From: Ehretia macrophylla
Taxonomy: Eukaryota; Streptophyta; Magnoliopsida; Boraginales; Ehretiaceae
DNA length: 64,000 nt
Assembly: GCA_037974665.1 (NCBI GenBank)
Contig: CM075771.1
Span: 34,952,425 to 35,016,424 of the forward strand
Direction: 5' to 3'
Shown: piece by piece, positions 826-45,022 of the stretch
How the letters are laid out: each line of letters starts with the position of its first letter
How positions within the stretch are numbered: the first letter of the stretch is position 1
Translations under genes and position numbers: made by a program
Notes under the pieces: generated by a model
Databases searched by the model: none
Told to the model about the DNA's origin: nothing
What the model saw: the letters and a program-made list of their open reading frames with translations, nothing else

Positions 826-3800
826 ATGAGCAGCGGCGCTGCCGGCTTCATAAGCGCGTCGTATCGGCGGCACACAAAGGCCGGAACATCGAGTCGCCAT
901 GGCTCCGGTGACGACGAGGATAAAGACGGTTCCGGGCCCTTCGATAATCTTCAGACTGAGAGCGTTCGCATTGACGGCTGGAGAGTAAGTTTTTTTTTTT
1001 TTTTTTGGGTTTTGGTTTTTGAATCTATTTGTTTAATGTATTTTTTTTTTTTGCCTTCATTTCTTTGGAGAGTATTATATGGAGTAAGTTTCGTGTGTTT
1101 ATTTAATTTTATTATTTATAATGATAGTTGAGGCTTTTAATTTATTTTTTATGAATATAAATGTTTCTGGAAAGATTTTCGATGTAGTTTAGTTAAAATT
1201 TTGAAGTGACCTTGGCAAAATGTTTAAGTTGTTGTTGTTGTGTAACTTGGAAGTTATGATCACGGGATTGATTAGTGGAAGTAGGCCCTTGCAAGAATGC
1301 AAAGGCCCGTGTAGTGCGTAGACCCCAAAAGTGGATCTAACACTTCTCGGAAACTTTCTTATGGCTGGAGTTTCGTGCATCGGTTTTCCCTCTAGTTTAC
1401 TTATTATGTCACCGCTAAACTATATTTTTAGGAAGTACAAATGAATTTCAAGTTGAATTTTGATTTTATTACAGCTTGTGTATGTGTGGAACTGTTTCAT
1501 GGGGTAAGTACCCTGATATATAATACAACTTCTCGAATTTTCTGGGAGGCTGCTAGAGCAGAAGTGCCATTTGTGTATCTCAATATCCCTTTAACTTTGA
1601 TCTTACCAGGGTACAGCCTTCATATTGATACTAAATGATTTCATTCTTCTTTAGCTAGCTGCATTTGTGCTCAATGCTTGCCGTAGATTCCTGTATTTGA
1701 AAAAAGAAAAAGACAGGAAGCAACTGATAACAAAGTTCAGAGCGTATGCAGTAGCCATTTGGGTAATGTTATTTCTCATCCTCGATGTGCTTACAAAACT
1801 TCAGTCTTTCTGTCAAACTCTTAACACATGATGCTTTATCAGGCGGCTGAAGTTTTCCAAGCAGCTGCACCAGGAGTTAGTGGTATGTCTTTTTCGTTTT
1901 TTATGTTGTATAACTAGCTGATTCCAAAGCTTTACTGAACAATATAAGCACTAATTTGTTAGAAAAGAATGAAGAGAACTTCTCTACATTATATAATGAT
2001 TCATAAGTGGCATCACTTATTTACATGGTTCTTCTGCATTTTGTTCTTGATTTGGTTTCGGAAGATATCACACTAAAAGTTGTAGAGCTGGTCGTCTTAT
2101 TTTACCTCAGATTCATAGTTACAGTCCCATTGTTCCCAAGAGGAAGAAATACAATGTAAAAGTTAGCAAATAACTGCTGATTGAGTGAATTGTTTCGTAT
2201 GAGTTGCAATTATCCTGGGATACGCAGTTCTGTCTGAAGACAGGAAAATGCAGACCTATCTGTAGTTTTAGATTCTTGTGGAAGTGTGAAGTTATTCTTA
2301 TGAATTGCAATCATCTTGGCATATGGAGTTCTTTCTGAAGAAATTGGACAAGAAAATGCAGGGTATCTGTGATCTTAGATTTATGGAAATGTTTTTTTTT
2401 AATTTTTTTTTATGGACATTTTTGGAGTTTTCTAAAGCATTCATGCTGTTACTAGATTTTTTGACTTTGCAACCATATTTTGTTAAAAGTGCTTCATCTA
2501 GTCTTTGAAGTGGTCTTTGTAAATTTCATAACTTTTCTCTTTATTTTCCTTTCTGCAAACTTGTCCCCATTCATGGGATTTCTCTATACTCCAAATACTA
2601 GTGTTCTGGTGCCATGCCTTTGGATGTTGAGCTTTGGAAGACTTGTAAGTAGAGTGGCATGTTCACATCTGATATACTAATATTGCATAGCTCTATTTAG
2701 GTTGATAAAAACTTGTTTGTTTATGTCATGGAAAAATGATCAAGTTTCAAGTTATGTTAGTTTCTATTGCATTTTTTAATTCGATTGACAACTTTATGTT
2801 CTCTAGGAGACAAATCACCCTTAGAATCTATGTGATGTTAAATTAGTTATTTTCCATAATAGAAGTTATGGGTTTTAGATGAACTAGACTGTAGCCTGCC
2901 TAGCAAGGTAGCGATGCACTTGGTGAAATAAATAGTTTTATAAGTTGGAATATAGTCTTCAATTAATTGGTTGCAATAGATATTATGTATTCAATTGTAT
3001 TTCATTTTGCTGGTCTTTGGAGTAAAAGTTTTGAGTATCTACTAGTCTTGGTTGGAATTGTGCACCGAACTGCAAATAACATTTTATTAGATATCCAAGG
3101 CTGAAATTGAAGTCAGCAAGATCTTATGGTAAGCCTTCTGGTTGATGTTCTTATTATATATTCTTGTTCTTCTTCTAGCAATATTTTTTTTCTTCATTTA
3201 TTTACCAGTATTACAAATAACTTAAGGCTCTTTCGTGCCTCTTCTTCTTCTTCTTCTTCTTTTTTTTTTTTTTTTTTGGTACAGCAACTATATGTACAAA
3301 TGGTGAATAATATAATCTGCATCTTAGTTTCAGGAACTCCAACAGAGTTGCCTGCTACTCCAACCGACAGTAATGAGTTTGAGATCAGCCAAGAGGTTCT
3401 TGCTTTGATTTCGCAGAAGCAAGATTTTCCTATTCTACAACAGTATGGAGGGGCAAGTCTTTTGCAACCACCTTAATTTTCCCTTTTCATTTTTTTTCCT
3501 AAAGCCAGATTTTTATTTCATTGATGCCTTACTTTTTTTCTTGTTAACAAAAATCAGGTTGAGGGCGTGGCTGATAAACTAAAAACGAATTTGGAAGAAG
3601 GAATTCATGGCGATGGGACTGACATATTAAAGCGGAAGAATGCATTTGGCTCCAATACATACCCACATGACAAGGGTCGGAGTTTCTGGGTATGCTATGC
3701 CTGAATTTCAATATTGATCACTCTTCTTGTTTTATAGAAGTACGCTAGTTGTCGGAGCCTTGTACACTAGGTACGACCTATATTAATGACTTCAGGAATA

Positions 3801-6800
3801 TAGTCCTTGGTTTTCTTTTCATTGTAGAAATTTCTCTGGGATGCTTGTGGAAATAAAACACTTATCACCTTAATGGTAGTTGCAGCTGTTTCTTCGGCAC
3901 TTGGTATACTGAAGGTGAGTGTTTTGTGACTAACATGCGATTATAAACAGGTAATCGAGGTAGTGGACTTTTTTCTTATTTTTTAAAAATTATTTTCTGT
4001 GAAGTTTTTAGTGGACCGTGCACTTTTCCTGAGATTAGCATTGAGTTTCCAACTTGGACGAGATTTCATTAACACTGTGATTGCAGATTGAGCAGTAGGG
4101 TCGATGGGTTTTATTATGTCTTTGTATAAATATAACTGCATGTTTCCTGAAGTAGTAAGAGCTCAATATTGTTTTGTTGACTATTGAACTACTTGTATTT
4201 GTCCGCTCTTATTTCCCTTCTTATCCAAGATTCAAGAGTATTTGTCCCCTCATATCTCCCTTCTTATCCAAGATTCAAGAGGGTGATAAGGAAATGATAA
4301 CTATTAACTTATTACCTCATCTAAAAGTTTAAGCTGTTAGAGATGAGTTTATTTATTTATTTATTGTTTTCATCATGTCGACTCTTGTGTAGGTGGGATT
4401 CTTTTTGATTGAGCTGTACTTGGACATTTTCATTTTAAACGGGTGGCGGGGACACTTGAACCCATGACCTTTTGGTTACTGGGCCTGATACTATGTTAAC
4501 TTACCACATCATTTAAAAACCTAAGCTGTTGGAGGGGGGGTTTATTTTATTTATTTGTTATCTTTCAACAAATAGTGGGAGCTTCATGCAACAGGCTGCC
4601 CTTTATTGTCTTCAATAATACAAACTGAATTATGTAAGCTGTCCATTGTCTATGAAACATTCTAGTTGACTTTTTCTTGCAAGGAGTCAAGTTGTGGGAA
4701 TTCACACTAAGAATGACGTTTAACATGGTAACATGACAATTATTTGTAATGTGTTTTCATGTGTGCATAATATTGTTTTTTCCCTATCTGCTCATTTTTG
4801 TTTAGGTTGGTATCAAAGAAGGATGGTATGATAGTGGTAGCATCATGTTGGCAGTCATCATTGTTACAGTCGTCAGAGGTATGTTTCTCTGCCTCTACGT
4901 GTAAATATATATGCAACTGTTAGCTTCCCACGTATATAGATCGGTTAAATTTCAATTTTGACTGGTGTGATACCAGTCTATGGATTTTGTTCTTCACTTA
5001 GGTGGCAGTGATCTAGTTCACAACTTTGTCTCATGCCTATAGTAACTAAAGATTAAATCAAGGATGTAATTCTTTATGAGTATCAAAATAGTGTGTCAAT
5101 CTTTGCTATTGTCATTACTTTCTTAACTTGTATGTACTCTTAATTATGCAAGTTCAGTTTTTAATTTGTTGCATTGATCTCGCTTTTTATCTACTTAGTA
5201 AAGCATTGATACATGAAAATGGAAACTTGCTTTGTTGCAAGGCTGAGATCTTTTTCTTATCACTTTCCTTTATAGTTACTGCAGACCGGAATCTTAGAGA
5301 ATTTAGTGATTGATATATAAGTCTGCTGTTTGATACTGGCTTGTCATTCTATTAATGTTGGCACTTCTTTAATTCAGCGGCATGTTTGCTTGATGAAGAT
5401 GCATATTTGTTTTCTATCTTAATTATAGTTCTATACTGAGCAAAATTGCTCAAAAAGAAGAAGCAACTAATTCATGTATTCCTTAAGATTATTCTACTTG
5501 GATAGAATTTCAGTTATTCATCTTGTCAGATCATTGGTAAGTTAGTGTAAAACATGCAATGACCCCATTTTAAGGCATATAAATTATACTTTCTTGAGGA
5601 TTATCATATGAACTGACATTAGCATTTATGCCCTCTCTTATCGCACTGTCTATTTTGTGCTGTTATGAAGTGTGCAACATTTTCTTGATTTTTCAGCTAT
5701 AAGTGCTTATAAACTGTCGCTCCAGTTCCAATGTCTGAATGAGGAGAAGCGAAACATACACCTGGAGGTTTGCCTGTTAGTTTCTTTTACACATAGTTTC
5801 TAGCCCACTTTTCTCATATTTCCATGCATGCACGTACAGGTAATGAGGGGTGGAAGAAGAGTTTCAGTTTCAATATTTGATATTGTTGTTGGTGATGTTG
5901 TACCTCTCAAAGTTGGTGATCAGGTGAGTGCACAAATTTCCTTCTTTTTCTTTTCTCTATCAAAATGTTTATGTTGTTTATGTAATTTTCACTTCCTTAC
6001 TACTAGCTTTATCACAGGTACCAGCTGATGGACTTTTGATCCCTGGTTACTCTCTTACAATTGATGAATCAAGTATGGCGGGGGAGAGCAAGAATGTATG
6101 TAACCAAAGGCAGCATTCTTCTCCCGCAAAGTAAATATTGTTTTGAACAGTTGTTCACTAGTTACTTATGATATTTCAGACAAGTAAAGATTCAGAGGCA
6201 CCATTTCTAATTTCTGGAACCAAAGTAGCAGATGGTAACGGCACCATGCTGGTATAACTCTGAACTCTTCCCTTCTGAGTTTATAGTATGCTTGAGTGGA
6301 TTCAAAAGTGGAAGTATAGATAGAGTGGAAGTAAAAGTGGATGTGGGGTTCCTCTTTACGGTTTGGTCAGGAAATAAAGTGTAGGGGTACCTAACATCCA
6401 CATCAACCTTTCATTTCCTCCCTGTCTCTTGGTATTGGATCTATACTTCCATCCCAGCTACAACCAGACAACACAAGGTAATGATGTGTATCCTCCCCCT
6501 CCTACAAGGGTGTACCTTCCCCTTCCATTTTCCTTTGAAACCAAAAATCAGTCTTGATCTATTTTTTGGCTTCCTTAGATGCGGGGATAGTTATGGATTC
6601 TCCAAAGTGCTGTTTGCATGTCTCTGTTTTGTTTCCCCTTCTGCAATGGTGATAAATTTAGGTCTAGACTTGAGTCAACATGCTATTTTGGCTGGCTTTA
6701 TATGGTTACAAGCATATTCAAAGTCATAAACCACCTTCTTATGAATTTTGTTGTCAATAAGTTTTAGAAGTGTTACTCTCTGTTTATTTTATCTTACTAT

Positions 6801-9800
6801 GATTTACTGATAGCTCAGTAATGATTCACTGTTCTTTTGTGGTAGCTTACGTGAGTTACTCTCTTACCTGATTTAAGGTTACGAGTCTTGGGATAAATAC
6901 AAGGTGGAGATTGTTAAGGACCAGCACTTTGGAGGACAATGGTGAAGAAACACCGCTGCAGGTGACTTAAGAGACATTTTCCGACTCTCGCTTGAATATT
7001 CGTGGTATGGAATCTGACATAGAACAATTTTGTTTATTAGGAACGATTGATCACGGTTCAGAGATTTATTGGTATTGTTGGGGTGGTTGATGCCTCAGCA
7101 GCTCTGATTGTTCTCATGGCCAGGTAGGTTTTTGTACACAGTATTAACTATTTTTTTATCTTATAGATGATTTTTAACCTGTGGTATTTACGAACTTTAG
7201 CATGTCATTTACAGATATTTCGCTGGGCTTACCAAAAATCCTGATGGAAGTGTCCAATTTAAAGCTGGACAGACTAGTGTTCGTGATGCTATTGATGGCG
7301 CTATAAAAATTGTTACTGTTGCTGTATGTACTCATATCGGTGTAAATTAATTTTCACCAATGCCCACTTACTATATATTTTGTTGTCTAATTTTGTAATA
7401 ATCTTTAGGTCGCCAATATATTTGTTGCTGTTCCAGAAGAGCTTCCCTTGGTTGTTACCTTAATGTACGAGCAAGTATCTCACCTCATTATCTTCTCTGA
7501 CCAAGTTTTCTCCCATCTAGCATTATTGGTTGTTACTTATTGACTTAAATCCACATTTAGCATTATTGATTGCACTTGGTCCTTTCCCCACTGATTTATG
7601 CAGAGGCTTCTTGAAATATGCAGTAATTCTTCTTTAAGTTTTGGTTCTCTTTTGATTTATTTATTGTCTTCAACATACCACGCACTTGCTGGTGAATTTC
7701 TTTGTGGTTGAATCTTGCACGTGGAAATATTCTTTTTTAAATTGGTGGCTGCAAGACTCAAGCCTAGAACATTTTTGATAACTCGCACTGATGTCATATT
7801 AAAGTGATTACCTCATCTTTAGCTTTTAGTGTCGGGTTTATTTTATTTATTTATTATCTTCTACAAGTTTTTTCTTTGTCACACCTGTGCTGCTTTCTTT
7901 CTGAATACTTTGTACACTGGAGAGCGTGGTGCTTTCTTTTATGTAATATTTTGTATTTCCAGCTAGAGTGTCCTAAATCTGTATTTACTAAGGGCATTTC
8001 TTCCCTTTTCTGTCTGATATTTGATTGTACGATTTTCTTGAGTTACTTGAGTGGATTTTGTCTTGTAGGTTTGCATATTCAATGAGAAAGATGATGGAAG
8101 ACAAGGCCTTGGTACGTATGAATAAATATTTCTATTTGGACCTCCTTTCTTTTTACATTCTTTGGTGAATTCATTTGACTCAACAAACAAGAAATTATTT
8201 CCATTCTAAGCTGAGATTGTACTACCTGTAATATTTGTATTGTTTTCCTCCTTTATCTGCTGTTATTTAGGTCCTAATTGTTCAGAGATTGTTTCCTCAC
8301 TTTATGTAGAATTAGTTTCCTAACATAGAGTCTTGTGTACTCTATTTATTTTGTACCTTTTCCTTTAGTGAATAACAAGAAAGAATCGTCTTATGGGATA
8401 TCAAGGACTTAAGTTTCAATTTTTATTTTTTTGGGCTCTTGTTTCTTCTTCTATACTGGGATTTTTTTTTTCTTTCTAATTACAGAATGTCTCTTGGCCT
8501 TCGTTGCCTTTAATCCTGGCCTTTTATTGCCTCTCTTCAATCCCTACATAAAAAAATCTCTAAATGTCTGTCACGATTGAAACTACTACTCCAACCAACA
8601 CCGAGTCTAACCAACCTGTCTAGATCTCATATGGTAATATCATAACCTACAACCATCATATTAAGAAATGAAGAAATTATCCAGTCTGGTCTTAAAGGGT
8701 AAGGTTGTTATTGAAGGGTAAAGGAAAACTCAACCACCTGATTGGTCCTGTGCCTATTGAAGATATTCAAAGTTTGAGGCTTGGGACATGGAAGACACTT
8801 CAATTATTATCAATTGCCTTTAGGAAAGGATCACAGAAGTGCACTCTCACCCCATAACAACTTTACTTCCTTTGATAGACTTTCTCTATTGCATAAAGCA
8901 TTTCTTTATAGATTTATACACCGATAAAATTCCACAAATAGTCAAAGAGGCATTTAGGAATGAGAAATGAAAGAGAAGCCATGAGTGCGGAAATGAGAAC
9001 ATTAGAAAAGAATGAGGGGATATAGTTGGGTCGCCAAAAAGGGAACAAAGTGGTAGGGTGTAAATGGGTGTTCGTTGTGAAGTATAGAGGTGATGGAACC
9101 TTGGAGAGATATCAAGCTAGGCTTGCAGTCAAAGGCTTCTTGAACTTAAGTAGGCTATCAAGAGATGTTGCAAAAAAATTGAGTAGGCTATCAAGAGACA
9201 TTGCAAAAATGAACACTACTAAAGTACTATTGTCTAATGTTGATTGGTCCTTGGAGCAGTAGTTTTGATGTTAAGAATGCGTTTTTGCATGGTGATGGTG
9301 ATGGTGATTTAGAGGCAGAAGTCTACATCAAGGCACTGTCGGGTTTTACTGAAAACTTTAGGAACAACAATTTGTGTAGGTGAAGAGGCCCTATACGGGT
9401 TAATGCAGTTTCCTAGAGCATGATTTGAGAATTGTTTCTTGTGTAATAAAGAATACGGATTTTAAATTGAGCCAGGGTAACCACATACTCTTCATTAAAC
9501 AGTAAAAAATTGGTAAAAGTTGCAATTTGGATTGTTTATGTTGATGGCATTATTGTAACTGGAAATGACTTCGAAGAAACTGAGAAACTTAGGAAGCAGT
9601 TGGCCAACTAATTTGAGATAAAAGAACTAGTAAAAGTGAAATCTTTCTTGGAAATTGAAGTAGCATACTCTAGAAATATATTTTTATTTTCCAACAAAAA
9701 TATATACTTGATCCCTTTAGGAGATATGTATCCTCGGATGCAAGCCCACACACGTTCCTACCGAATAGAATCACTAACTAGAACAAGTTAATGATATGAT

Positions 9801-14209: not shown

Positions 14210-14261
<52 letters not shown>

Positions 14262-35200: not shown

Positions 35201-38200
35201 CATCTGATTGAATATAAGTAATTTTCTAATTACAAAGATTTTGAACCATTTGGATAAAAATGGGAAAAATTGTAGCCACATCAAATTTTCTCATTAAAGG
35301 ATAAAACCAACAAAATCGACTAAAGTCGCCAATTAGTACAATATAAAATCGAAAGCCATTAGAAGAAGTTGTGGGGACAGGGCCTCATACATCACAGTGT
35401 GAAGTAATCGAGAAGATTTCTGTTGGCGAACTTCAAATGGAAGGCGATTGACTTTTTCCGAGTTGGCAACTGCGACAAACTCTTTTGTCTGATGCGTCAT
35501 GAGAAATTGAAAGAACTGGACGAAGAAACTGCATAGTTCGGGTTGATGGATGTCCCAGGCGAGCATGCCAAATATTGGAATCCATTTTATTATAAACTCT
35601 TATTTGGTTGACTGTAGAGGCCATTGTCAATTGTCCCTTGATGAAGGAGTTTCCCTGTCTTTGTGTCCTTTATGCAGTAGCCAGAGGAGGTAAAAATAAA
35701 ATAACAATCATTATCACGAGTAAATTGTGCAATTGAAATACGACGCTTTGCCAAAGAAGGAACAATTGAAACTTTGCAAGGTAAAGTAGAGCCATGTGAT
35801 AAAGCGAAAATAGTAATACCAGTATGAGAGATGGGCAAGGCTTGACTATTACCAACCATTACCATATCATTGCCAGAGTATGAAGTCTTACCAACAACAG
35901 GAGTAGTATCCGGTGTCATGCTATGAGTAACACCAGTGTCAAGGTACCAGGCAGGATCAGAAGGATCAAAGATTTGTATAGCATTCATAGCTTTGGCGGT
36001 ATTGTCAATTGCATTGTCGGGGGCCCAACAATTGTTGGCCTTATGATATGGGTGACCTCAACAGCAACACACAATTGGTGAAGTTGAGTTACCACGTCCA
36101 CGACCTCTAGAGAAGCTGCGACCTCCACGACCACGACCACGACCACGACCACCACCATTGAAATTACGATCCGATTGAGCATCTTGTTTAGATTGATTTT
36201 TGTGTGGAGAAGATGACCAAAAATTAGAAGATTGGTTACCCTGCGTGCCGAGAAAAGCCATTGATTTGTTTATGGAAGAAGAGGCAGAAAGACGCAACTC
36301 AAAATCCATGAGTAAGAGTGGAAGGGTCGTCGCTCAACGAATAAAAGTCCGCATAGGTGGGACTGACTGGGCGAGAGTTGATGGCCGCAACAATAGGATC
36401 AAACTCAGAACCTAAGCCACGAAATGTCCAGAGAATGAGATCATCCTCATCAACGGGTTTACCAGCACTTGCTAGTGCCAAAGAAAGACTCTTGACTTGC
36501 TGGACATAGGCGTGAATGGCCATGGTGCCTTTGTTAATGGACTGAAGCTCGGTCTTCAGTTGTTGGATGCGAGAATAGGACTGGGTAACATATAATGTCT
36601 CCATAGTAAGCCATACATCACGAGAAGTGTTTTTATCAACAACTTGGGATAGAATCGTATCTGATAAAGATGTCAAAAGCCACCCGAGAACGAGTTGATC
36701 AATACGAGTCCATTGAGCAATTTGTTCTGGCGGTACAGATGGCTTTGGGGTAGTGCCGTCGACAAACCCCAAAAGATTGTGATAGCGGAGGATTGGATAC
36801 ACTTGTGTCTTCCATAAAAGGTAGTTGTCGTGAGTAAGCTCAAGGGAAATCTCTTGATAAATGTGGTCAATTTTGGGGAAGGTGGATTCATTAGAAGCAG
36901 TAGCAGCGACAATAGATTGCGTAGAAGTTCTTGAGGCAACCATGAGAAAGGAGCACAAGAGAGTGGATAACGTGCTTGTTAAAAAAAAAAAGCTAGGCTC
37001 GTGATACCATGTAAGATTGGGAAAATTGCTCGATGATTGTTCGAGCTATTGCATTCATTTATATAGTTTTATACAACAATGATTGTACATGAAATCGGAT
37101 AAGATATACATCAATATTAACAACAGACTATTATGTGAAGAAGTTGTTATGATAAGCTTCAAAGATAAGATTCTGTTGGAGGAGATAAGTCCGAAGCAGT
37201 TGATGGTGTTCCGAAGCAATTGATGGTGTTGACAATAGGAAAATAACCAAGATTTTTTTATCTCTGATAAGCCCACAATATGCTATGCCTAAGTGAGCTG
37301 ATGTCAAAAATCATGGTTGCTTAGATATTTGGCTTTTTGTAAATGTGTGGAAAAGACAAACATTGAAATCATTAATGAGGAGATAAAATTTTAAATTTAT
37401 CATTGCTTCTGTACATCTGCAAATTAACATGGATAAAGTCGCCTTCGGATGTAAGAAGAAACTAGCATCACGCATATCTCTTCACGAAAGAATCATTATC
37501 TAACACCTTGTGGCCGAAGGCATCTCCACTAATCTTGTAGGTGTTAGTATAATCTACTACTTATTGAGAGCAATCAAATATTTTACGAGCGAACCAATTA
37601 AAAACAGAGAATAATATATGGAATTGGTTGAATTGTATTGCTATGTGAATGTGCAACGGTATATAAAGGCTCCTTCTAGGAGGAAAACTAGGAAACTAAC
37701 CTCCCTAATAAAGAGGAAAATAAAAACTGATTCCTAAAATCTCTCTACCAGCTAACTAACGAAATATAGCACATAATTAAATATGGTACATAAACAAATG
37801 ATATTCTAGGAGATCTTTCAACACTCCTCTTCAAGCTGGCATGAAGATATCACTCATGGCAAGCTTGCCAACCAAATTCTCATATTGTGCCTTAGGAAGT
37901 CCTTTGGTGAGTATGTCAGCTACTTGACTTGTGGTAGGTATATAGGACATGCATATCACACCACTGTCTCTTTTCCTTGATGAAATGCTTATCCACTTCT
38001 ACATGCTTTGTTCTGTCGTATAGAACTGGATTATTGGCTATAGAAATTGCAGCTTTGTTGTCACAATAGACTTTAGTGGGTGTTGGTGTAGGAATCTTCA
38101 ACTCTCCTAGAAGTCTTTTGATCCATAACACTTCACAAAATCCATGTGCAACAAACCGAAATTTTGCTTCAGCACTACTCCTTGCAGCTACACTTTGTTT

Positions 38201-41200
38201 TTTGCTTCTTCAAGTAAGCAAATTACCTCCTACAAAGGTGCAATATCCTGAGGTAGATCTTCTATCATTGATATCACCTGCCCAATCTGCATCTGTATAG
38301 GCCTCCACCTGAAGATGGCCTCTATTTTTAAACAAAAGTCCTTTCCCTGGAGTCCCTTTGAGGTATCTCAAGATTCTGAATACAGCTTCAAAGTGAGTAG
38401 GTCCAGGTGAATGCATGAACTCGCTTACTACACTTACTGCAAAAGCTATGTCTGGTCTAGTATGTGCCAAATAGATTAATCTTCCAACTAATCTTTGATA
38501 GCGTTCTCGGTCCACCACTTCATTAACTGTTGATGCTTTCAACTTTACATTTGGTTCGGTTGGAGTATTTGCTGCCTTACAACCAATCATTCTTGTTTCT
38601 TTGAGTAAATCAAGAATATACTTGCATTGGTTGATAAAAATTCCCTCCTTGGATCTGGCAAACTCCATTCCGAGAAAATACTTTAGCTTCCCTAGGTCCT
38701 TGATATCAAATTTGACCTCAAGCTTTTTCTTCAAGTTATTGATCTCAAGATAATTATCTCCAGTTATGATTATATCATCAACGTAAACTATCAGAATGGT
38801 TATTTTACCTTCGGTGGAATGCTTGAAAAATAGAATGCGATCAGCTTGACTCTTTGAGAACCCATGTCTCCTAACAATATTTCCAAAACACTCAAACCAG
38901 GCTCTAGGAGACTGCTTTAGTCCATATAGAGCTTTCTTCAACTTGCAAACTTTCCCTCTTCCAAGACTTTCTTCAAATCTGGGAGGCAGGTCCATATATA
39001 CTTCTTCTTGCAAATCTCCATTTAGAAACGCATTCTTAACATCAAACTGATGAAGTGGCCAGTTAGAGTTAACTGCAAGAGAAATAAGTATTCTAATAGA
39101 GTTAATTTTAGCAACAGGAGCAAAAGTCTCTTGGTAGTCTATACCATGAGTTTGAGTAAATCCTTTTGCTATGAGCCTCACTTGGTATCTTTCCACACTT
39201 CCGTCAGCTTTACAATTCACAGTAAACACCCATTTGCACCCAACTGTCTTCTTGTCTTCTGGTAGATCAATAACACTCCAAGTGTTATTCTTCCTGAGAG
39301 CATTCATTTCTTCCATCACAGCTAATCTCCAATTCAGATCACTTAATGCTTCCTGAACAGTTCTTGGAACAGACAGATTAGAAATCCTAGACACAAATGC
39401 TCTATGAGTGTTTGACAATTTTTCATATGACAAGTATTTTGCAATGGGATGTTTAGTACATGCTCAGATTCTTTTCCTAAATGCAATTGGAAGATCAAGA
39501 TCAGAAGAAGGTATATCAAGAGATGAAGAAGGATTGTTACTCTGAGTTGTAGGACCATCACTCGGCAAATTGGATTGAACATCTGCTGGGAAAATAATTG
39601 AAGCATTAGCACGTTGGTGAAACTTTTTCCTGATATAAACCTGAAGCTCTGGCTGAGGATTGTGATCCATTGGAATTACTTCTCCCCCTGTCTTTGATAA
39701 AGACATCTAACAAAGATGTATTGATAGTATTATTCCTAGTTTCCATACTTCCAACAGGTTTTTCCAAAAATTGTTTATCAGAATTAATCAAGGGAATAGA
39801 CACTTCTGGTATAAGCTCTGGAATAGGTAAAGTTTCCCAAAAATTATCTTCCTCAACTATGTTCTCCCCCTGAAGATAATTTTTTTGAAAGAAAGGTTGA
39901 TCCTCAACAAAACTGACATCCATACTTTCATAAAAAAAATTTGTGATAGGGTTAAAATATTTGTACCCTCTTTTATTAGATGCATAACCAAGGAAAACAC
40001 ATTTTTCAGCCTTTGGATCAAGTTTTGAATGGAAAACATTCGGTATATATACATAACAAACGCAGCCAAAATTTTTTAGAGGGAGATCTGTAGTTATCCG
40101 AGATATAAGGAAAAACTTTTTTAAAACCTGTAAAGGTGTTTCAAATTTCAAAACTCGAGATGGCATTCTGTTTTTTAAGTAACAAGCGGTCAAAAGTGCA
40201 TTACCCCCGAGATATTTTGGAACATTCATTGAAAACATAATGGCTCGAGCAACTTCAAGTAAATGTCTATTTTTTTTCTTTCAGCAATGCCATTTTGTTA
40301 TGGTGTGTCACGACAAGTTGATTGGTGAATAACACCTTTTTCTAAAAGGAATGTTCCCAAATATTGATTAAAATACTCAGCTCCATTATCAGTTCTTAGA
40401 ATGCCAATTTTTGTTTGGAATTGATTTTCAATCATGAGAAAAAATTCTTTAAACCGTTGCTCAACTTCAAATTTCTTTTCCAACAAATAAACCCAACATA
40501 TTCTTGTGTGATCATCAATAAAAGTCACAAACCATTTTTTGCCAGAAAGTGTTTTAACCTTTGATGGGCCCCAAACATCACTATGACACAAGTAAAATGG
40601 TTTTGAAGCAGAATAAGACTATTGGAAAAAAAACATGATGATCTTTAGCTAAATGACAAGCTTCACAATGAAAATTTGAACAATCGACTCCTTTAAGCAA
40701 TTCAATAAAAGCAATTCAGGAAACAAATGTTTGAGATATGGAAAGCTAGGATATCCTAATCTCCTATGCAATAACATTACTTGATCATCGACAAAGATTG
40801 AACTACTACTACCTAATCCATGAGCTTTTTTATTCCAGGAAGCTGTTTCATCAGTGTAGTACAGCCCATTTATTTCTCTAGCAGTTCCAATCATCTTCCT
40901 CGAGTTCTGGTCCTGAAAAACACAAATGGAAGGAAGGAAGAAAACTGAACAGTTAGAATCCTTAGACAATTTGCTGGCAGAAAGAAGATTGCAGACAAGT
41001 TTTGGCACATGTAAAACAGATTTTAGAGAGATTTTTTCGGAAATTCTAATATGTCCTTTGCCTGCAATTAATGAAAAACTACCATCAACTATTCTAACCT
41101 TTTCAGGACCAGAACACGGACAATAGGAACTAAACAAATGAGAACAACTGATCATATGATCGGAAGCCCCTGAATCTATGATCCAAGGACTGCTTTTTTC

Positions 41201-44200
41201 AAGAACAGAAAGTGCCAAAGGATTGCTACCTGTTTGTGCCATAGAACCGATAGGAACATTAGGTGATTAATAGGATTTTAGCAATTTAAGAAGATGATCT
41301 AACTGCTCTTTACTAATTGGAGATGACTCGGCCTCATTCGCTATAGGTGTACTCTGTTCACCAGGTTTGTTTGCCCTGCCATTGAGTGGTCTGCCATGCA
41401 GCTTGTAGCAAGTCTCTCGAGTATGGCGTGGTTTTCCACAGTAGTCACAGCGCAGGTTATTTTTGTCTCTTGTATGTTGGTTTTGAGACGTTCTACGGCT
41501 GACTTGGGCTTCAGGAATGGCTAAGGCTGGTCCTTCTACAGACCCAGTTGCACCTGCAGCCTTTTTTCCAAGCATCACTTGCCTGCAACTCTCTTCTCTC
41601 CATACCTCTGCAAATACTTCTCCAATTGGAGGAAGGGGGTTTCTCCCAGCAATTCGACCATGGGCTTCATCATATTCAATGTTTAAACCTGCAAGGAAGT
41701 TGAAGAAGACCAACATCGACCATCTTTTTATAGTGATTGTAGTCCTCGGGTGATTTCCACTCATAATCATTGAATAAGTCCAGGTCTTGCCAAATTCTTT
41801 TAAGAGAATTGAAATATTTAGTCACAGAATCCTCACCTTGGCTAATTTCCCCAAGTCGTAGGGTTAACTCAAACACTTGGGATTGATTCCCTAAATCTGA
41901 GTACATCTGTGAAACATTGTCCCACAACTCTTGGTTGTTGAATAGCAGAGATAATTTGCACTTATCTCTTCGGCCATGGAATTGACCAACCATGTCATTA
42001 CCATTGAGTTTTCGGCATCCCAAGTGGCATAGGCTGGATCCTTCACGTCGGGCTTCTTTGTATCTCCAGTAATATAGCCGATCTTGCCTCTCCCCCTGAT
42101 GTACATACGAACATATTTTGACCATCGAAGGAAATTGTCGCCATTTAGTCGGATTGTAGTAATCTGAGTGGGGTGATTTTCAGATAAACTCCGGACGATT
42201 TGAGGCTCGGATTAAGATGGCAGAGAAGTCTCGGACGTGACCTTGGACATTTTGGGAACAAGAAAGTAAATTCAAACCCTAGGATTCTATTCTCCTCTCT
42301 AATACCATAAAAACAAGAATAATATATGGAATTGGTTGAATTGTATTGATATGTGAATGTACATCGGTATATAAAGGCTCCTTCTAGGAGGAAAACTAGG
42401 AAACTAATCTCCCTAATAAAAAGGAAAATAAAAACTGATTCCTAAAATCTCTCTACCAGCTAACTAACAAAATATAGCACATAGTTGAATATGGTACATA
42501 AATAAACGATATTCTAGAAGATCTTTTAACACCAATCCCAATCATATTGAGGTTGACTCAGTGTATAAAAAGGCGTAAGGCGCACTAAGGCGATAGGGGG
42601 TCCTAGTGCCTAGGCGCAAGGCGCAAGGCGAAGGCGCGCGCCTTAGCGAAGTGAGGCGCATTTCTTATACTATGAAATCAAAAAATTATGCAAGATACTA
42701 AAATAGAAATTTTAATTAGATAATACTTTAACTAAAAAACATCTAAAAGATATATATATATATATATTCGTCAAAAAGTGCACATATCAGATCTGTCCTT
42801 CCTCTTTTTGTCTTCTTTTTCTTCTTTTAGGGTTTCTTTGAAATATCTAAAAGTCAAGGGTAAAATAGTACTTTGCACATATATTAAAAAAAAAATATTG
42901 ACAGAAATAAAAAATTTTAAAGAGGCGCAGCGAGGCGCGCCTCAGCGCCTTGTGCGCCTTGCTGCGCCTTGCTGCGCCTTGATCAAAACGCCTTGCCTTA
43001 GCTTGTTAAGGCGCTGATGGTGCGCCTCGCCTCTAAGGCACGCCTAGGCGCGCCTTTTTTGCGCCTTTTTAAACACTGGGTTGACTGTCACTTTGTGGGA
43101 AATAAAGTGTTGACGAATGACATATTCTTATGTCTGTTCCAGCGATAAAATAGTCGGCCTGTTCACCAAAAATTATTAAATGGTCCCCAGATTGAGGATA
43201 TCTGTAACTTATTGGGTATATTTAACATAAATGCCAGCTTGAGCGGTGATATCTTTAACTTGTTGGGTACATGTAACGTATATGTACCAGCTTGAGGCGG
43301 ATCATTGCTAATAAAAGGGTATTTGTGTAATTGTGTTTACCCATGATATAAATGCGGATTAGTGCTCATTTAGAGCACTAAGCCATGCTTTCCCATTCTC
43401 AGACTTTTTCCTTATCTTCTACAACTAGGTTGTCAAATCTAGTTTGCAGAAATAACAGAAAACAACTATAACATAAAATAAATAAAGTACAAACCTAAAA
43501 TATCTGATAAAATTTCAGGGACTTAAAAAGACTAAAAGAGGTAGATGTTCCTATATTAATCTTTGATATTATAAAGGGCGAGGGAGGGTTTAGCCTGCTA
43601 GTTGTTTTTCATTTTCCTGATACATTTACTTAGAGTTTATCATTGGAAGTTGCAGATATTAGTGCTCACTTAGAGCACTAAGCCATTCTTTCCCATTCTC
43701 AGACTTTTTCCTTATCTTCTACAACTAGGTTGTCAAATCTAGTTTGCAGAAATAACAGAAAACAGCTATAACATAGAATAAATAAAGTATGAACCTAAAA
43801 TATCTGATAAAAGTTGACAGGGACTTAAAAGACTAAAAGAGGTAGATGTTCCTATGTTAATCTTTGATATTATAAAGGGCGAGGGAGGGTTTAGACTGCA
43901 AGTTGTTTTTCATTTTCCTGATACATTTACTTAAGAGTTTATCACTGGAAGTTGCAGATATTAGTGCTCACTTAGAGCACTAAGCCATTCTTTCCCATTC
44001 TCTGACTTTTTCCTTATCTTCTACAACTAGGTTGTCAAATCTAGTTTGCAGAAATAATAGAAAACAGCTATAACATAAAATAGAAAAAGTATGAATCTGA
44101 AATATCTCATAAAAGTTGATAGGGACTTAAAAGACAAAGAGATAGATGTTGCTATATAAATCTTTTGATATTATAAAGGGCAAGGGAGGATTTAGTCTGC

Positions 44201-45022
44201 AAATTGTTTTTCATTTTCTTAACACATTTACTTAGATTTTATCATTCGAAATTGCAGATATTCAACGAATTCAATGCTCGAAACCCTGATGAAATTAATG
44301 TGTTCAAAGGAGTCCACAAAAACCATGTCTTCATGAGTGTAGTTGGGCTTACTTCATTACTCCAGGTATCTGCGTTTTTGCTACTTTTGGTTCAAATTCA
44401 CATTAAATATGTCTGCCACCCTTTTCTTCACACCTTCCCCTCAATTCAGTCCCACGAGCCTCTTATCCATTCTCATTGAATCACTCATTATTATTATTTT
44501 TTTTTCTAATGATGTTTTTGAAAACTAATTTCATTGATCCCTTGTTCAAAGATGCTTATTTTTATATGTATCGTACATATCTCACAAGACTTGTAATAAT
44601 CTCAGGTGATTATAGTCATGTTTCTTGGTAAGTTCACTTCTACAGTGAGACTCAGTTGGAAGTTATGGCTTGTCTCCATTGCTATTGGCTTTATTAGGTC
44701 AGTTTATCATCTTCTTGCATTCCATATTATTTCTTTTAATCTTTTGTATTATGGTACAAGGCGATATCTTTGTAATGGTTCGTATTTGATAAGAACTTTT
44801 TTTTCGCCCTTTCTCTGACAGTTGGCCACTTGCCATTATTGGTAAACTGATACCTGTTCCAAAGACACCATTTGTTCATATTTTCCCAAGGCATGATCAG
44901 AGAAATCAGAGAGGTAAATGAGGCATCAGTCTCATTGTTTGCTGTCATAGAAACAATGATTTGTTTGCTCATTGCATTAATGTTTCTTTATTCTAGGTTT
45001 CTCAATTGGAGACTACTGCTGA
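826..45022 (+). CDS. Autoinhibited Ca2+-ATPase-like protein (ACA8/9/10 type), 34 exons, catalytic motifs degenerate
   Basis: Exons: 826-984, 1655-1762, 1843-1882, 3334-3452, 3558-3689, 3828-3914, 4806-4878, 5697-5767, 5840-5923, 6018-6095, 6180-6251, 6878-6961, 7041-7123, 7215-7323, 7409-7464, 8069-8111, 23559-23642, 23771-23893, 25471-25536, 25620-25718, 26253-26363, 27055-27225, 28308-28367, 28560-28724, 28812-28928, 29439-29537, 30522-30659, 30780-30880, 31506-31551, 31665-31793, 44258-44365, 44606-44697, 44822-44913, 44997-45022. Together they make 1074 codons plus TGA with no stop or frameshift, the usual length for plant plasma-membrane Ca2+ pumps. Seen: calmodulin-type segment [14 protein letters not shown] (52-65), KGAAE (600-604) and ten hydrophobic segments. 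The family pumps Ca2+ out of the cytosol. Here key residues differ: AGES (312-315), PEEL (442-445), DESGV (485-489), TGED (709-712), GSSP (763-766), DGTNDASA (788-795), Tyr854 and Ser882. Transport activity is therefore doubtful. The many-intron layout fits ACA8/9/10 rather than ACA1/2/4/11. The final exon and C-terminal tail are less certain than the rest. Confidence 0.9.
2200..2395. repeat. Tandem duplication (about 100 bp x 2) in intron 3
   Basis: Two diverged direct copies lie at about 2200-2295 and 2300-2395. Each runs from an ATGARTTGCAATYATC motif through GTTCTNTCTGAAGA to a final TTAGATT block. They sit wholly inside intron 3 of the ATPase-like gene and have no coding role. The rest of this 1.45-kb intron shows only a short T-rich and CTT-repeat stretch near 3240-3280. 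Confidence 0.6.
3453..3557 (+). other. Non-canonical GC-AG intron (intron 4)
   Basis: The exon ends in TATGGAGGG and the intron starts GCAAGT, which fits the known strong GC-donor consensus. It ends in TCAG before GTTGAG. The reading frame and the family sequence QQYGG-V join exactly only with this GC donor, and no GT lies at a position that keeps the frame. Length is 105 bp. Confidence 0.8.
4302..4570 (-). mobile_element. TRIM element copy A (intron 6)
   Basis: A miniature LTR retrotransposon in reverse orientation. Two imperfect terminal repeats (about 4302-4362 and 4497-4570) share the block CATCTAAAAGTTTAAGCTGTTA and an AT-rich TTTATTTATT tail ending near CAACA. A degenerate reverse-complement primer site (TGATACTATG, about 4486) abuts the right-hand repeat. 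The internal part holds the GGGTGGCGGGG and ACCTTTTGGTT blocks shared with the clean copy at 26613-26897. No clear target duplication is seen. Confidence 0.6.
7650..7865 (-). mobile_element. TRIM element copy B (intron 15), decayed
   Basis: The same family as the element at 26613-26897, reversed. A remnant terminal repeat ends TTATTGTCTTCAACA at about 7675. The internal block GGTGGCTGCAAGACTC follows, then a second terminal repeat with ACCTCATCTTTAGCTTTTAG that ends TTATTATCTTCTACA at 7865. It lies inside intron 15 of the ATPase-like gene. The boundaries are approximate because the copy is decayed. Confidence 0.5.
8960..9905 (+). pseudogene. Copia reverse transcriptase remnant of the old host element
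   Basis: Translation in broken frames shows the family landmarks [20 protein letters not shown] (about 9050-9108), [11 protein letters not shown] (about 9265-9297), [13 protein letters not shown] (YVDD changed to YVDG, about 9535) and SQFMHSS (9893). Several stops and frameshifts are present. A 17-bp unit with AGTAGGCTATCAAGAGA is duplicated at 9149-9201. The segment stops abruptly at about 9910, where the LINE begins. Confidence 0.75.
11283..15765 (-). pseudogene. Copia gag-pol of element 11120-16614, broken
   Basis: Domains read in the order expected for copia on the minus strand. Gag is at 15765-14950, then a CCHC knuckle ([14 protein letters not shown], 14944-14903), a protease site altered to DSCA (about 14650), pre-integrase GHPSL (about 14270), an integrase core around 13850-13580, reverse transcriptase with YVDD (about 12227-12238) and RNase H (11810-11290). 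RNase H has YAD where a catalytic Asp is usual. Stops fall at about 15540, 15278, 13600 and 12745. Frame shifts occur before the knuckle, near 12610, near 11790 and near 11500. It cannot encode a full polyprotein. Confidence 0.8.
14023..14261 (+). other. Foreign insert in copia, ending in the 5' part of 25S/26S rRNA
   Basis: Between the copia codons for GHPSL (minus strand, ends 14262) and SLKMMVP (starts near 14022) lie about 240 bp that do not fit copia. Positions 14210-14261 match the conserved 5' region of plant 25S rRNA (ATCAATAAGCGGAGGAAAAG, then AAACTTACAAGGATTCC and TAGTAACGGCGAG). The other 187 bp are GC- and CpG-rich and unidentified. The insert breaks the integrase frame. It could come from template switching onto rRNA during reverse transcription, or from filler DNA at a repaired break. 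Confidence 0.75.
16837..20521 (+). mobile_element. Young, internally deleted Ty1/copia element
   Basis: The LTRs at 16837-17068 and 20290-20521 are both 232 bp and differ at 5 sites. They start TGTTGG and end TTTA rather than the usual CA. The primer site TGGTATCAGAG starts at 17069 directly after the LTR. A polypurine tract (TTGAGGGGGAG) ends at 20289. The flanks GTGGA (16832-16836) and GCGGA (20522-20526) fit a target duplication with one change, inside the LINE. Total length is only 3.7 kb, because protease remainder and integrase are missing. It is the youngest insertion in the window by LTR identity. Confidence 0.9.
17146..20283 (+). pseudogene. Deleted copia gag-RT-RNase H of element 16837-20521
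   Basis: Gag starts ATGTCAGAAACTAC at 17146 and has an early stop near 17246 and a shift near 17390. A knuckle [14 protein letters not shown] lies at about 17956-18000. The frame reaches protease DSGG at 18238 and joins directly to the linker before reverse transcriptase (about 18260), so the pre-integrase and integrase are deleted. Reverse transcriptase has YVDD at 19321-19332, a frame shift near 19435, and RNase H with YTDADWAG (about 19810). A TAG stop lies at 19983-19985. The end is MEDIFKPA at about 20280. The protein family resembles that of the element at 37599-42533. Confidence 0.8.
20785..22880. mobile_element. Solo LTR, about 2.1 kb, probably Gypsy type
   Basis: This segment interrupts the old copia RNase H between GYLV and TW. 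It starts TGTTAGGCCCCGAATTTCC, ends GTCTTACA (TGT...ACA ends) and is flanked by perfect TTTGG repeats (20780-20784 and 22881-22885). It has no long frame, primer site or second LTR, so a solo LTR left by recombination is the simplest reading. The TGTNAxGCCCCG-like start is common in Gypsy chromovirus LTRs, but the superfamily call is an inference. A short non-coding element is the alternative. Confidence 0.7.
23269..23491 (+). repeat. 3' LTR of the old host copia, 68 bp before exon 17
   Basis: It begins TGTTAACA after the polypurine tract and ends GTTCGTAACA. It aligns with 8180-8392 through shared blocks but with many changes and gaps. The end lies 68 bases upstream of exon 17 (23559), so the branch point and polypyrimidine region of the 15.4-kb intron border directly on transposon DNA. 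Confidence 0.7.
24174..24218 (+). other. Possible 45-nt cassette exon in intron 18
   Basis: A T-rich tract and TTTGTAG precede 24174, and GTAAGT follows at 24219. The 45 bases between are a multiple of three and in the phase of the flanking exons. They read [15 protein letters not shown] with no stop. It would fall between residues 535 and 536 in the nucleotide-binding domain. Known ACA proteins have no such insert to my knowledge, so it may be chance. Confidence 0.25.
25839..26145 (+). repeat. Purine-rich tract with G-quadruplex motif in intron 20
   Basis: About 300 bases are almost all G and A on the coding strand, based on GAGAGG and GAGGGA units. At 25865-25890 five runs of three or more Gs are separated by one or two bases (GGGGTGGGTTGGGG, then GTGGGG and TGGGGGG), a strong quadruplex pattern. 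As intron RNA it would also carry the motif. The tract opens long frames by composition only, and none is a gene. Confidence 0.8.
26613..26897 (+). mobile_element. Complete TRIM retrotransposon (285 bp), type copy C
   Basis: The terminal repeats at 26613-26693 and 26824-26897 start TGYTGAAGATAATAAATA and end GGTGGTAACTTAACA. A primer site, TGGTATCAAAACATAGG, begins at 26694 directly after the left repeat and resembles the initiator-methionine tRNA complement. A purine block GCGGGAGCG precedes the right repeat. The flanks ATATC (26608-26612 and 26898-26902) are a perfect target duplication. It has no coding capacity, so it depends on proteins from other elements. It sits in intron 21 of the ATPase-like gene. 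Confidence 0.88.
27640..27760 (-). repeat. Possible degenerate tRNA-derived SINE in intron 22
   Basis: On the minus strand, GGGGCAGCTCAACTGGTCAG resembles a tRNA A-box region. The downstream GGAGGTTTCCCTAG is only a weak B-box candidate. No tail or target duplication was found. The call rests on the A-box look alone. The rest of this 1.1-kb intron (27226-28307) shows nothing recognisable. Confidence 0.25.
29671..30480. repeat. Tandem repeats (about 259-273 bp x 3) in intron 26
   Basis: The phrase TAATATGAACCTGAATCCTA recurs at about 29750, 30021 and 30280. Each time it is followed by CTCCGTTGTGCATTTTTGTT, TATGCCTGCAG and AAACATGGCAAATCGTTTAG. The third copy is truncated. Copy 1 holds a further 37-bp internal duplication near 29812-29885, and a short duplication lies at 29671-29760. 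Each unit carries an acceptor-like TGCCTGCAG (AG at about 29945, 30203 and 30417), ahead of the true acceptor at 30521. Confidence 0.8.
32186..32276 (+). repeat. G-rich quadruplex-prone tract in intron 30
   Basis: Two clusters of G-runs on the coding strand lie at about 32190-32213 (GGGGGTAGGGGGTAAGGGG, then GGATGGG) and 32243-32275 (GGGGTGGGTGGGGGTGACTG, then GGAGGGG). Both satisfy a four-run G-quadruplex pattern. Just upstream (32130-32165) is an AC/TA-rich simple repeat. No gene is present. Confidence 0.7.
32516..37234 (-). mobile_element. Ty1/copia retrotransposon in intron 30
   Basis: The left LTR (32516-32720) and right LTR (37010-37234) start TGTAAGATTGGG and end TTRACA. They differ at about 11 sites, and the right copy has a 20-bp internal duplication (CCGAAGCARTTGATGGTGTT). 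The flanks ATAGG (32511-32515 and 37235-37239) are a perfect target duplication. Next to the right LTR, the minus strand reads TGGTATCACGAGC, a variant initiator-methionine tRNA primer site. At 4.7 kb it is complete in layout. Confidence 0.92.
32732..36943 (-). pseudogene. Copia gag-pol of element 32516-37234, broken
   Basis: On the minus strand, gag starts near 36943 ([10 protein letters not shown]) and ends with an [14 protein letters not shown] tail near 36100. The zinc knuckle after it is disrupted by a stop (36060). Protease reads DTGVTHSM (about 35935), with Val where Ala is usual. Integrase pieces span 35630-34480. Reverse transcriptase (34350-33439) has YVDD at about 33661-33674 and a frame shift around 33890. 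RNase H (33385-32732) has GYSDAEWAG and ends near LQVLSLP. Stops and shifts prevent one polyprotein. Confidence 0.8.
37599..42533 (-). mobile_element. Ty1/copia retrotransposon inside the copia relic
   Basis: The left LTR is 37599-37823 and the right LTR 42308-42533. Read on the minus strand they start TGTTRAAAGAT and end TTTTTA, so like the element at 16837 they do not end in CA. They differ at about 12 sites plus a single-base gap. The flanks CCAAT (37594-37598 and 42534-42538) are a perfect target duplication. The minus strand after the right LTR reads TGGTATTAGAG, a one-base variant of the initiator-methionine tRNA primer site. Length is 4.9 kb. Confidence 0.92.
37850..42260 (-). pseudogene. 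Copia gag-pol of element 37599-42533, broken
   Basis: On the minus strand, gag (about 42250-41267) is split by several frame changes and ends with knuckle [14 protein letters not shown] (about 41455-41410). Protease keeps DSGASDHM (about 41160). Integrase pieces lie at 40591-40298 and 40238-39606. Reverse transcriptase (39433-38210) is nearly uninterrupted, with [11 protein letters not shown] and YVDD (about 38778-38790). RNase H has YTDADWAGD and continues in a shifted frame to about 37916. Gag and RNase H resemble the element at 16837-20521, so the two belong to one family. Confidence 0.8.
42559..43078. mobile_element. hAT-type MITE (520 bp) rich in AAGGCGC
   Basis: The ends are CAGTGTATAAAAAGGCG and CGCCTTTTTAAACACTG, an inverted repeat with CAGTG/CACTG termini as in hAT elements. 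The flanking GGTTGACT (42551-42558 and 43079-43086) is a perfect 8-bp target duplication. Both ends are packed with AAGGCGC/GCGCCTT units, while the middle is AT-rich with a TA run near 42752-42768. No transposase is encoded. It interrupts the copia RNase H relic. Confidence 0.9.
43361..44262 (+). repeat. Triplicated 300-bp unit containing the exon-31 acceptor
   Basis: Copies lie at 43361-43660, 43661-43962 and 43963-44262. Each starts with a short palindrome (AGTGCTC, 5-base loop, GAGCACT) and ends TTGCAGATATT. In the last copy that end is the real splice acceptor (AG 44256-44257) plus the first bases of exon 31. The other two make perfect decoy acceptors (AG at 43654-43655 and 43956-43957). 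Splicing there would read five codons and then TAG. The copies are very similar, with copy 3 the most changed. Confidence 0.92.

What the first reader, a model, noticed from the sequence alone, without database searches (positions are those of the whole stretch)
826..45022. Full-length Ca2+-ATPase-like gene with nearly every catalytic signature altered: a candidate plant pseudo-pump
Across 34 exons the frame is intact (1074 codons). The P-type signatures read AGES (for TGES, 6078-6089), PEEL (for PEGL, 7433-7444), DESGV (for DKTGT, 23613-23627), TGED (for TGDN, 28572-28583), GSSP (for RSSP, from 28821) and [10 protein letters not shown] (for TGDGTNDAPA, from 28890). The phosphorylated Asp remains, but the adjacent Lys and both Thr are lost. 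Structural motifs (KGAAE, FPFN, DPCRPGV, ATEPP, calmodulin-type N-terminus) remain. Loss concentrated on catalysis without a single frame break suggests a retained non-transport role, for example a calmodulin or phosphoinositide decoy, or a partner of an active pump. Relaxed selection since very recently is the alternative.
Basis: partly seen in the sequence, partly recalled or inferred. Interest (0 to 1): 0.88.

Follow-up and report, generated by a model that had tools for sequence, protein, structure and literature searches.

The report
Dead calcium pump, frame still open
A plant calcium-pump gene (an ACA10 orthologue) has lost the residues that make the pump work, along with much of what its relatives keep, yet its 34-exon reading frame is unbroken; it looks like a dead or dying gene, and the open frame is still unexplained.

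Summary
The motifs, coordinates, 34 exons and 1074 open codons are real. By descent the gene is a plant PMCA-type (P2B) Ca2+-ATPase, an ACA10 orthologue about 14 kb from a PIRL6-like gene, in an asterid of the lamiid group. It is almost certainly not a working pump.

Loss is not concentrated on catalysis: near-invariant columns are changed at 12 of 59 in motifs and 80 of 445 elsewhere (Fisher P 0.72). Replacements largely look like unselected mutation in chemistry, spread over exons and effect on membrane helices. The calmodulin-type N-terminus scores below Pfam's cut-off. No listed relative shares the signature set.

Plain neutral decay does not fit either. Calibrated to the 92 changes, it predicts about 9 stop codons and 12 damaged splice-site bases. 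I see 0 stops and 1 altered donor (GT to GC). A conservative calibration weakens this to P about 0.02 each.

My reading: a redundant ACA10 copy that is dead and losing constraint along its length (0.5). The main rival is a full-length non-pumping protein whose frame is under selection (0.35). dN/dS, RNA and a paralogue search, which I could not get, would decide.

The parts
826..45022 (+). Whole gene: ACA10-type (PMCA, P2B) Ca2+-ATPase orthologue, 34 exons, 1074 codons
   Evidence: Rebuilt spliced model; TIGR01517 PMCA-type 851.9 bits, cut-off 507
826..8111 (+). Exons 1-16: 826-984, 1655-1762, 1843-1882, 3334-3452, 3558-3689, 3828-3914, 4806-4878, 5697-5767, 5840-5923, 6018-6095, 6180-6251, 6878-6961, 7041-7123, 7215-7323, 7409-7464, 8069-8111
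23559..31793 (+). Exons 17-30: 23559-23642, 23771-23893, 25471-25536, 25620-25718, 26253-26363, 27055-27225, 28308-28367, 28560-28724, 28812-28928, 29439-29537, 30522-30659, 30780-30880, 31506-31551, 31665-31793
44258..45022 (+). Exons 31-34: 44258-44365, 44606-44697, 44822-44913, 44997-45022 (last one uncertain; reading through exon 33 stops after ...RNQRGK)
1655..1762 (+). Degraded N-terminal autoinhibitory, calmodulin-binding domain (exon 2), 3-residue gap against relatives
   Evidence: PF12515 12.8 bits, cut-off 25; aligns to 4aqr at E 2.5e-7
3453..3458 (+). GC splice donor of intron 4 (GCAAGT)
   Evidence: sequence
6078..6089 (+). AGES for TGES (T312A)
7433..7444 (+). PEEL for PEGL (G444E)
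23613..23627 (+). DESGV for DKTGT (K486E, T487S, T489V); the Asp remains
28572..28583 (+). TGED for TGDN (D711E, N712D)
28821..28832 (+). GSSP for RSSP (R763G)
28890..28919 (+). [10 protein letters not shown] for TGDGTNDAPA (T786I, P794S)
30792..30794 (+). N882S in M6 (WVSLIMD for WVNLIMD)
   Evidence: aligned to SERCA (its numbering, Asn796, is recalled)
8112..23558 (+). Intron 16, 15.4 kb, holding broken Ty1/copia-like elements (recognised by eye from ORFs, no family search run)
   Evidence: ORFs; repeat pairs
31794..44257 (+). Intron 30, 12.5 kb, copia-like elements (by eye) plus a ~300-base tandem repeat that duplicates the acceptor region of exon 31
58863..64000 (+). Neighbouring PIRL6-like LRR gene (runs off the window): marker of the ancestral ACA10 neighbourhood
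   Evidence: exons read; 84% identical to an Olea PIRL6; same-contig pairs

Best explanation
This is the ACA10 orthologue of a lamiid asterid in its ancestral neighbourhood, no longer a Ca2+ pump. Shown from sequence: the phosphorylation, dephosphorylation, nucleotide/Mg and Ca2+-site motifs are altered, the autoinhibitory domain is degraded, and near-invariant residues have changed along the whole protein at a roughly even rate with neutral-looking chemistry. Inferred: an active ACA8/ACA10 copy elsewhere in the genome took over the Ca2+ export, selection on this copy lapsed, and it is decaying. The frame and splice sites are still whole either because the decay is younger than the missense load suggests, or because stops and mis-spliced forms are still weeded out.
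For: 92 of 502 near-invariant columns changed. Changes are even over exons (permutation P 0.25) and unclustered (P 0.51). Motif columns are no worse than others, 12 of 59 against 80 of 445. One-step changes have mean BLOSUM62 -0.32 at conserved, lamiid-fixed columns (neutral expectation -0.33, n 72) and -0.28 at columns conserved in 98% (n 82); relatives' own changes average +0.94 to +1.04. In columns of hydropathy-predicted membrane segments 34 of 139 changed with 5 new charges, neutral expectation 5.0; relatives have 0 new charges in 105 changes. End branch 0.63 against a median 0.098 in 98 rows. No listed relative carries the set. Arabidopsis plasma-membrane ACAs have overlapping roles (PMC5920303, listing and passages), which makes redundancy plausible.
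Against: Neutral simulation tuned to the 92 changes gives a mean of 8.5-9.1 stops, and none of 3000 runs at each of two settings was stop-free. About 12.6 hits are expected in 132 splice-site bases and 1 is seen. No frameshift is seen. Some constraint shows: soluble A, P and N regions 35 of 247 against 57 of 257 elsewhere (Fisher P 0.02, compared after the fact); W, C, Y and F changed 4 times against 9.3 expected, residue types overall P 0.026; outside the membrane the replacements are more hydrophobic than the neutral model in all 3000 draws. At variable columns the change rate (0.356) is no higher than in relatives (median 0.363, slowest 0.266), though even decay should add to it. An active paralogue was not seen, because the genome search did not complete.
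Confidence: 0.5

Rival explanations
1. Retained pseudo-pump: a full-length, non-pumping membrane protein is made and its frame is under selection, for example as a partner of an active ACA or as a protein whose truncation would be harmful. Residue identity matters little.
For: 0 stops against about 9 expected, 1 of 132 splice bases hit against about 12.6, 0 frameshifts over 34 exons. The internal gaps against relatives are whole codons. 21 of 33 donors keep G at +5. Slightly better kept soluble domains and aromatic residues.
Against: Conserved membrane, calmodulin-binding and catalytic positions are changed alike and harshly. PF12515 is below its cut-off. No listed homologue shares the set. 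If calibrated on a hand-picked, recalled set of universally conserved P-type positions (6 of 28 changed, lower bound 8%), the shortfall of stops and of splice hits has P about 0.02 each.
Confidence: 0.35
2. It still pumps, perhaps with altered ion choice: the Asp phosphorylation site, the TGES Glu, the M4 Glu and the M6 Asp remain, and a new Asp (857) sits where SERCA has a Glu in M5.
For: Remaining residues; Asp857 aligns with a SERCA Glu in M5 (its role and number recalled). The P-type-like ERMA works with DKQGI and without TGES (PMC13322241, passages only).
Against: Lys next to the Asp, both Thr of DKTGT, the TGD Asp, the TGDG Thr and the M6 Asn are all changed. A single Thr-to-Ile change at the last DKTGT Thr in ATP7A causes Menkes disease with probable partial loss of function (PMC3489546, passages only).
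Confidence: 0.05
3. The sequence does not represent one real allele (base-level error, chimera or other assembly fault).
For: Neutral-looking missense with an unbroken frame is an odd combination, and only one assembly was seen.
Against: Errors would also make stops and hit splice sites. The changes show transitions 41 to transversions 33, 14 changes needing two or more steps, and whole-codon gaps.
Confidence: 0.1

Closest known systems
Plant ACA8/ACA10 plasma-membrane Ca2+-ATPases (P2B), e.g. AtACA8 (PDB 8qmp)
   Same: Length, domain order, TIGR01517 match, PIRL6-like gene nearby; 69% identity at most among the 120 listed homologues.
   Different: Six catalytic signatures altered; autoinhibitory domain below its Pfam cut-off; end branch about six times the median.
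ERMA, a P-type-like ER Mg2+ ATPase (PMC13322241, passages read)
   Same: P-type fold keeping the Asp while the DKTGT surroundings and the TGES motif are altered.
   Different: ERMA is reported as an active transporter; here no conserved new motif can be shown, since no listed relative shares the changes.
Decaying duplicate or unitary pseudogenes of plants (general knowledge)
   Same: Loss of constraint at residues, harsh replacements, no relative found sharing them.
   Different: No stop, no frameshift, splice sites nearly whole.

Membership tests
PMCA-type (P2B) Ca2+-ATPase by descent | Full-length match to the family model | tested here: met
   TIGR01517 851.9 bits, cut-off 507; best solved relative AtACA8, 8qmp
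ACA10 orthologue | Tree position and shared neighbourhood | tested here: met
   Groups with lamiid ACA8/10 proteins (bootstrap label 94, read after re-rooting; SH-aLRT 99 with fewer rows; place within lamiids open). At least 11 plants have an ACA8/10 and a PIRL6-like protein on a contig of the same length; near-consecutive locus tags in three: Penstemon, Buddleja, Daucus. Distance apart was not checked in the other eight
Working P-type pump | TGES, PEGL, DKTGT, TGDN and TGDGTNDAPA motifs | tested here: not met
   All altered; 119-120 of 120 homologues contain each of these five strings, RSSP 118
Autoinhibited (calmodulin-regulated) ACA | N-terminal autoinhibitory domain PF12515 | tested here: not met
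   12.8 bits, cut-off 25; listed for the 120 homologues
Pseudogene | Broken frame or splice sites | tested here: not met
   (one GC donor)
Pseudogene | Residue-level constraint lost | tested here: met
   Largely; weak remaining constraint
Retained pseudoenzyme | Conserved non-catalytic parts and orthologues sharing the dead motifs | tested here: not met
   homologue set is limited to the 120 + 120 listed proteins
Retained pseudoenzyme | Expressed, with dN/dS below 1 | not testable with these tools
   No plant DNA or RNA-seq collection; own-genome search not answered

The most novel reading that the evidence does not exclude
A 34-exon plant Ca2+-pump gene kept open by selection on frame and splicing alone, while its residues evolve almost freely: a full-length, non-pumping ACA10 product (or its intact mRNA) has a use that hardly depends on its sequence.
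Probability: 0.3. Interest if true: 0.75.

Novelty: new variant of a known kind. Interest (0 to 1): 0.42.

Why it matters
If the frame is truly held open while residues drift, it would be a clean example of selection on an open frame and splicing without residue-level function, and possibly a pseudoenzyme of the plant Ca2+-pump family, which I did not find in print (searches; open-access library only). If it is a dying gene, it shows an ancestral ACA10 locus being lost in one lamiid lineage, and warns that altered motifs alone do not show a pseudo-pump.

Tried and rejected
Calmodulin or phosphoinositide decoy: rejected as the leading idea because the calmodulin-binding domain is as degraded as the rest. 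Catalysis-specific loss: rejected. Dispersed copy or retrocopy: rejected by 33 introns and the PIRL6-like neighbour.

Fast lineage as a whole: only partly excluded. The neighbour PIRL gene has 3 of 80 near-invariant columns changed, far less than the ACA gene, but that is itself at the high end (3 of 120 relatives have 3 or more). Its end branch is 0.24 against a median 0.19, or 0.145 against 0.086.

Closest species: not resolved. Rare shared states scatter over several plants, an Olea protein among the top two. Holding the gene with one Forsythia copy was rejected (AU p 0.00015), as was holding it with Cornales (0.008). Holding it with the coffee-family rows was not rejected (0.19); the nightshade-order rows join it in the quick tree with support 76.

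Literature: searches gave no paper; others (10 of 13 shown; 9) gave only loosely related ones, seen as listings (passages of two were then read).

Indel rate: BLAST pairs and my re-alignment with wider edges disagree (gap to substitution ratios of about 0.12 and 0.02), so frameshift expectations are given only as a range.

The change rate at variable columns (0.356) is no higher than in typical relatives (median 0.363; slowest 0.266). That is compatible with even hits on a slow background, but it is not the excess that plain decay of a typical lineage would give; it is a loose end.

Full report
What is there. All six motif changes are at the stated coordinates. With a recalled AtACA8 protein as a guide I rebuilt the gene: 34 exons, 826-45022, 1074 codons and a stop, no internal stop, 33 of 33 AG acceptors, 32 of 33 GT donors; intron 4 has a GC donor, GCAAGT. 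The final small exon is uncertain. Two introns of 15.4 and 12.5 kb hold broken copia-like elements, recognised by eye.

Identity. The protein matches TIGR01517 (PMCA-type) at 851.9 bits, cut-off 507, and AtACA8 best among solved structures. The best of the 120 listed full-length homologues are ACA8/10 proteins, those with names from asterids, at 67-69% identity. It groups with lamiid asterids (bootstrap label 94; SH-aLRT 99), with its exact place open. About 14 kb downstream lies a PIRL6-like gene. At least 11 plants have an ACA8/10 and a PIRL6-like protein on contigs of the same length in the two hit lists, three of them with near-consecutive locus tags (Penstemon, Buddleja, Daucus). So the gene most likely sits in the ancestral ACA10 neighbourhood.

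How far it has changed. Of 502 columns kept in at least 98% of 120 homologues, 92 differ here; the next rows have 50 (P0066, an outlier model dropped from later counts), 16 (P0064, also dropped from the homologue rows) and 9. The end branch is 0.63 against a median of 0.098 (98 rows). On the 504 columns found with 119 homologues, motif columns are changed at 12 of 59, others at 80 of 445 (Fisher P 0.72; motif set mine, partly recalled). By domain the rates run from 12% (A) to 30% (M3-M4); over exons they are even (P 0.25). Soluble A, P and N regions are changed at 35 of 247, the rest at 57 of 257 (P 0.02, picked after seeing the table). The loss is therefore general, and if anything lighter on the catalytic domains.

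What kind of changes. At conserved, lamiid-fixed columns (33 lamiid rows) the one-step changes have mean BLOSUM62 -0.32, neutral expectation -0.33 with s.d. 0.17 (n 72). Relatives' own changes at conserved columns average +0.94 (n 937) or +1.04 (n 132). In columns of membrane segments predicted by a simple hydropathy scan, which may miss helices, there are 5 new charges in 34 changes, neutral expectation 5.0; relatives show 0 in 105. Signs of remaining constraint: W, C, Y and F 4 changes against 9.3 expected, overall residue-type P 0.026; outside the membrane the changes are more hydrophobic than in all 3000 neutral draws, which may be mutation bias or selection. The N-terminal autoinhibitory domain scores 12.8 bits against a cut-off of 25, homologues 63-67 (4 of 4 scanned).

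The open frame. Starting from the window's own exons, random mutation until 92 near-invariant codons differ gives 8.5-9.1 stops on average, with no stop-free run in 3000 at either transition bias. The same load should hit 12.6 of 132 splice-site bases; one is hit, P about 5e-5. At gap to substitution ratios between 0.02 and 0.12 from repeats in the introns, some 7 to 35 indels would be expected, most of them frame-breaking; only whole-codon gaps are seen, in a model whose splice sites were chosen to keep frame. If the neutral load is instead set by the lower bound of change at universally conserved P-type positions (6 of 28, set picked by me from memory), the stop and splice shortfalls have P about 0.02 each. 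A young decay is thus unlikely but not excluded.

Is it a pump? Lys and both Thr of DKTGT, the TGD Asp, the TGDG Thr, the PEGL Gly and the M6 Asn are all changed. For the last Thr of DKTGT, a Thr-to-Ile change in ATP7A causes Menkes disease, judged probably a partial loss (PMC3489546, passages). ERMA shows that a P-type-like protein can work with altered motifs if its Asp is kept (PMC13322241, passages), so a changed motif alone is not proof. The whole set, with changed membrane positions, makes pumping very unlikely. The new Asp857 aligns with the M5 Glu of SERCA, but the residues at two SERCA Asn positions became Tyr and Ser (SERCA residue roles recalled).

Orthologues. Of the 120 full-length and 120 partial homologues listed, none contains [39 protein letters not shown] or WVSLIMD; VMGGSSP occurs in one partial one. 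No close transcript-derived piece was listed (best about 77% over 73% of the query). Whether the genome holds an active paralogue is unknown: the tool did not answer in six requests.

Verdict. By descent an ACA10 pump; by residues a dead one with constraint largely gone along its length; by frame and splicing still whole. I put a dying redundant copy at 0.5, a retained full-length non-pump at 0.35, sequence artefact at 0.1, altered pump at 0.05. The tests that separate them need congener DNA, RNA and population data.

Noticed in passing
window 58863-64000 (+): PIRL6-like LRR gene, open in the three exons seen, with mildly raised divergence; a PIRL6-like protein sits on the same contig as an ACA8/10 gene in at least 11 other plants.
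   Followed up: yes
window 46646-47960 (-): Remnant of a GDP-fucose protein O-fucosyltransferase-like gene in pieces with frame changes between the ACA and PIRL genes (two of four pieces match PF10250 weakly, below its cut-off).
   Followed up: partly
window 43332-44262: A ~300-base tandem repeat in intron 30 duplicates the 3' splice acceptor region of exon 31, giving two upstream look-alike acceptors (TTGCAG then ATATT).
   Followed up: partly
window 16830-20521: Copia-like element with 97% identical ends whose reading frame is already in several pieces, inside an intron of a gene whose own frame is whole.
   Followed up: no
window 30597-30599: Asp857 in M5 aligns with the position of a SERCA Ca2+-site Glu (role recalled) where the aligned ACA8 and PMCA chains have no acidic residue; likely chance, but worth a look if the protein proves active.
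   Followed up: partly
window 29851-30469: Imperfect direct repeat within intron 26.
   Followed up: no
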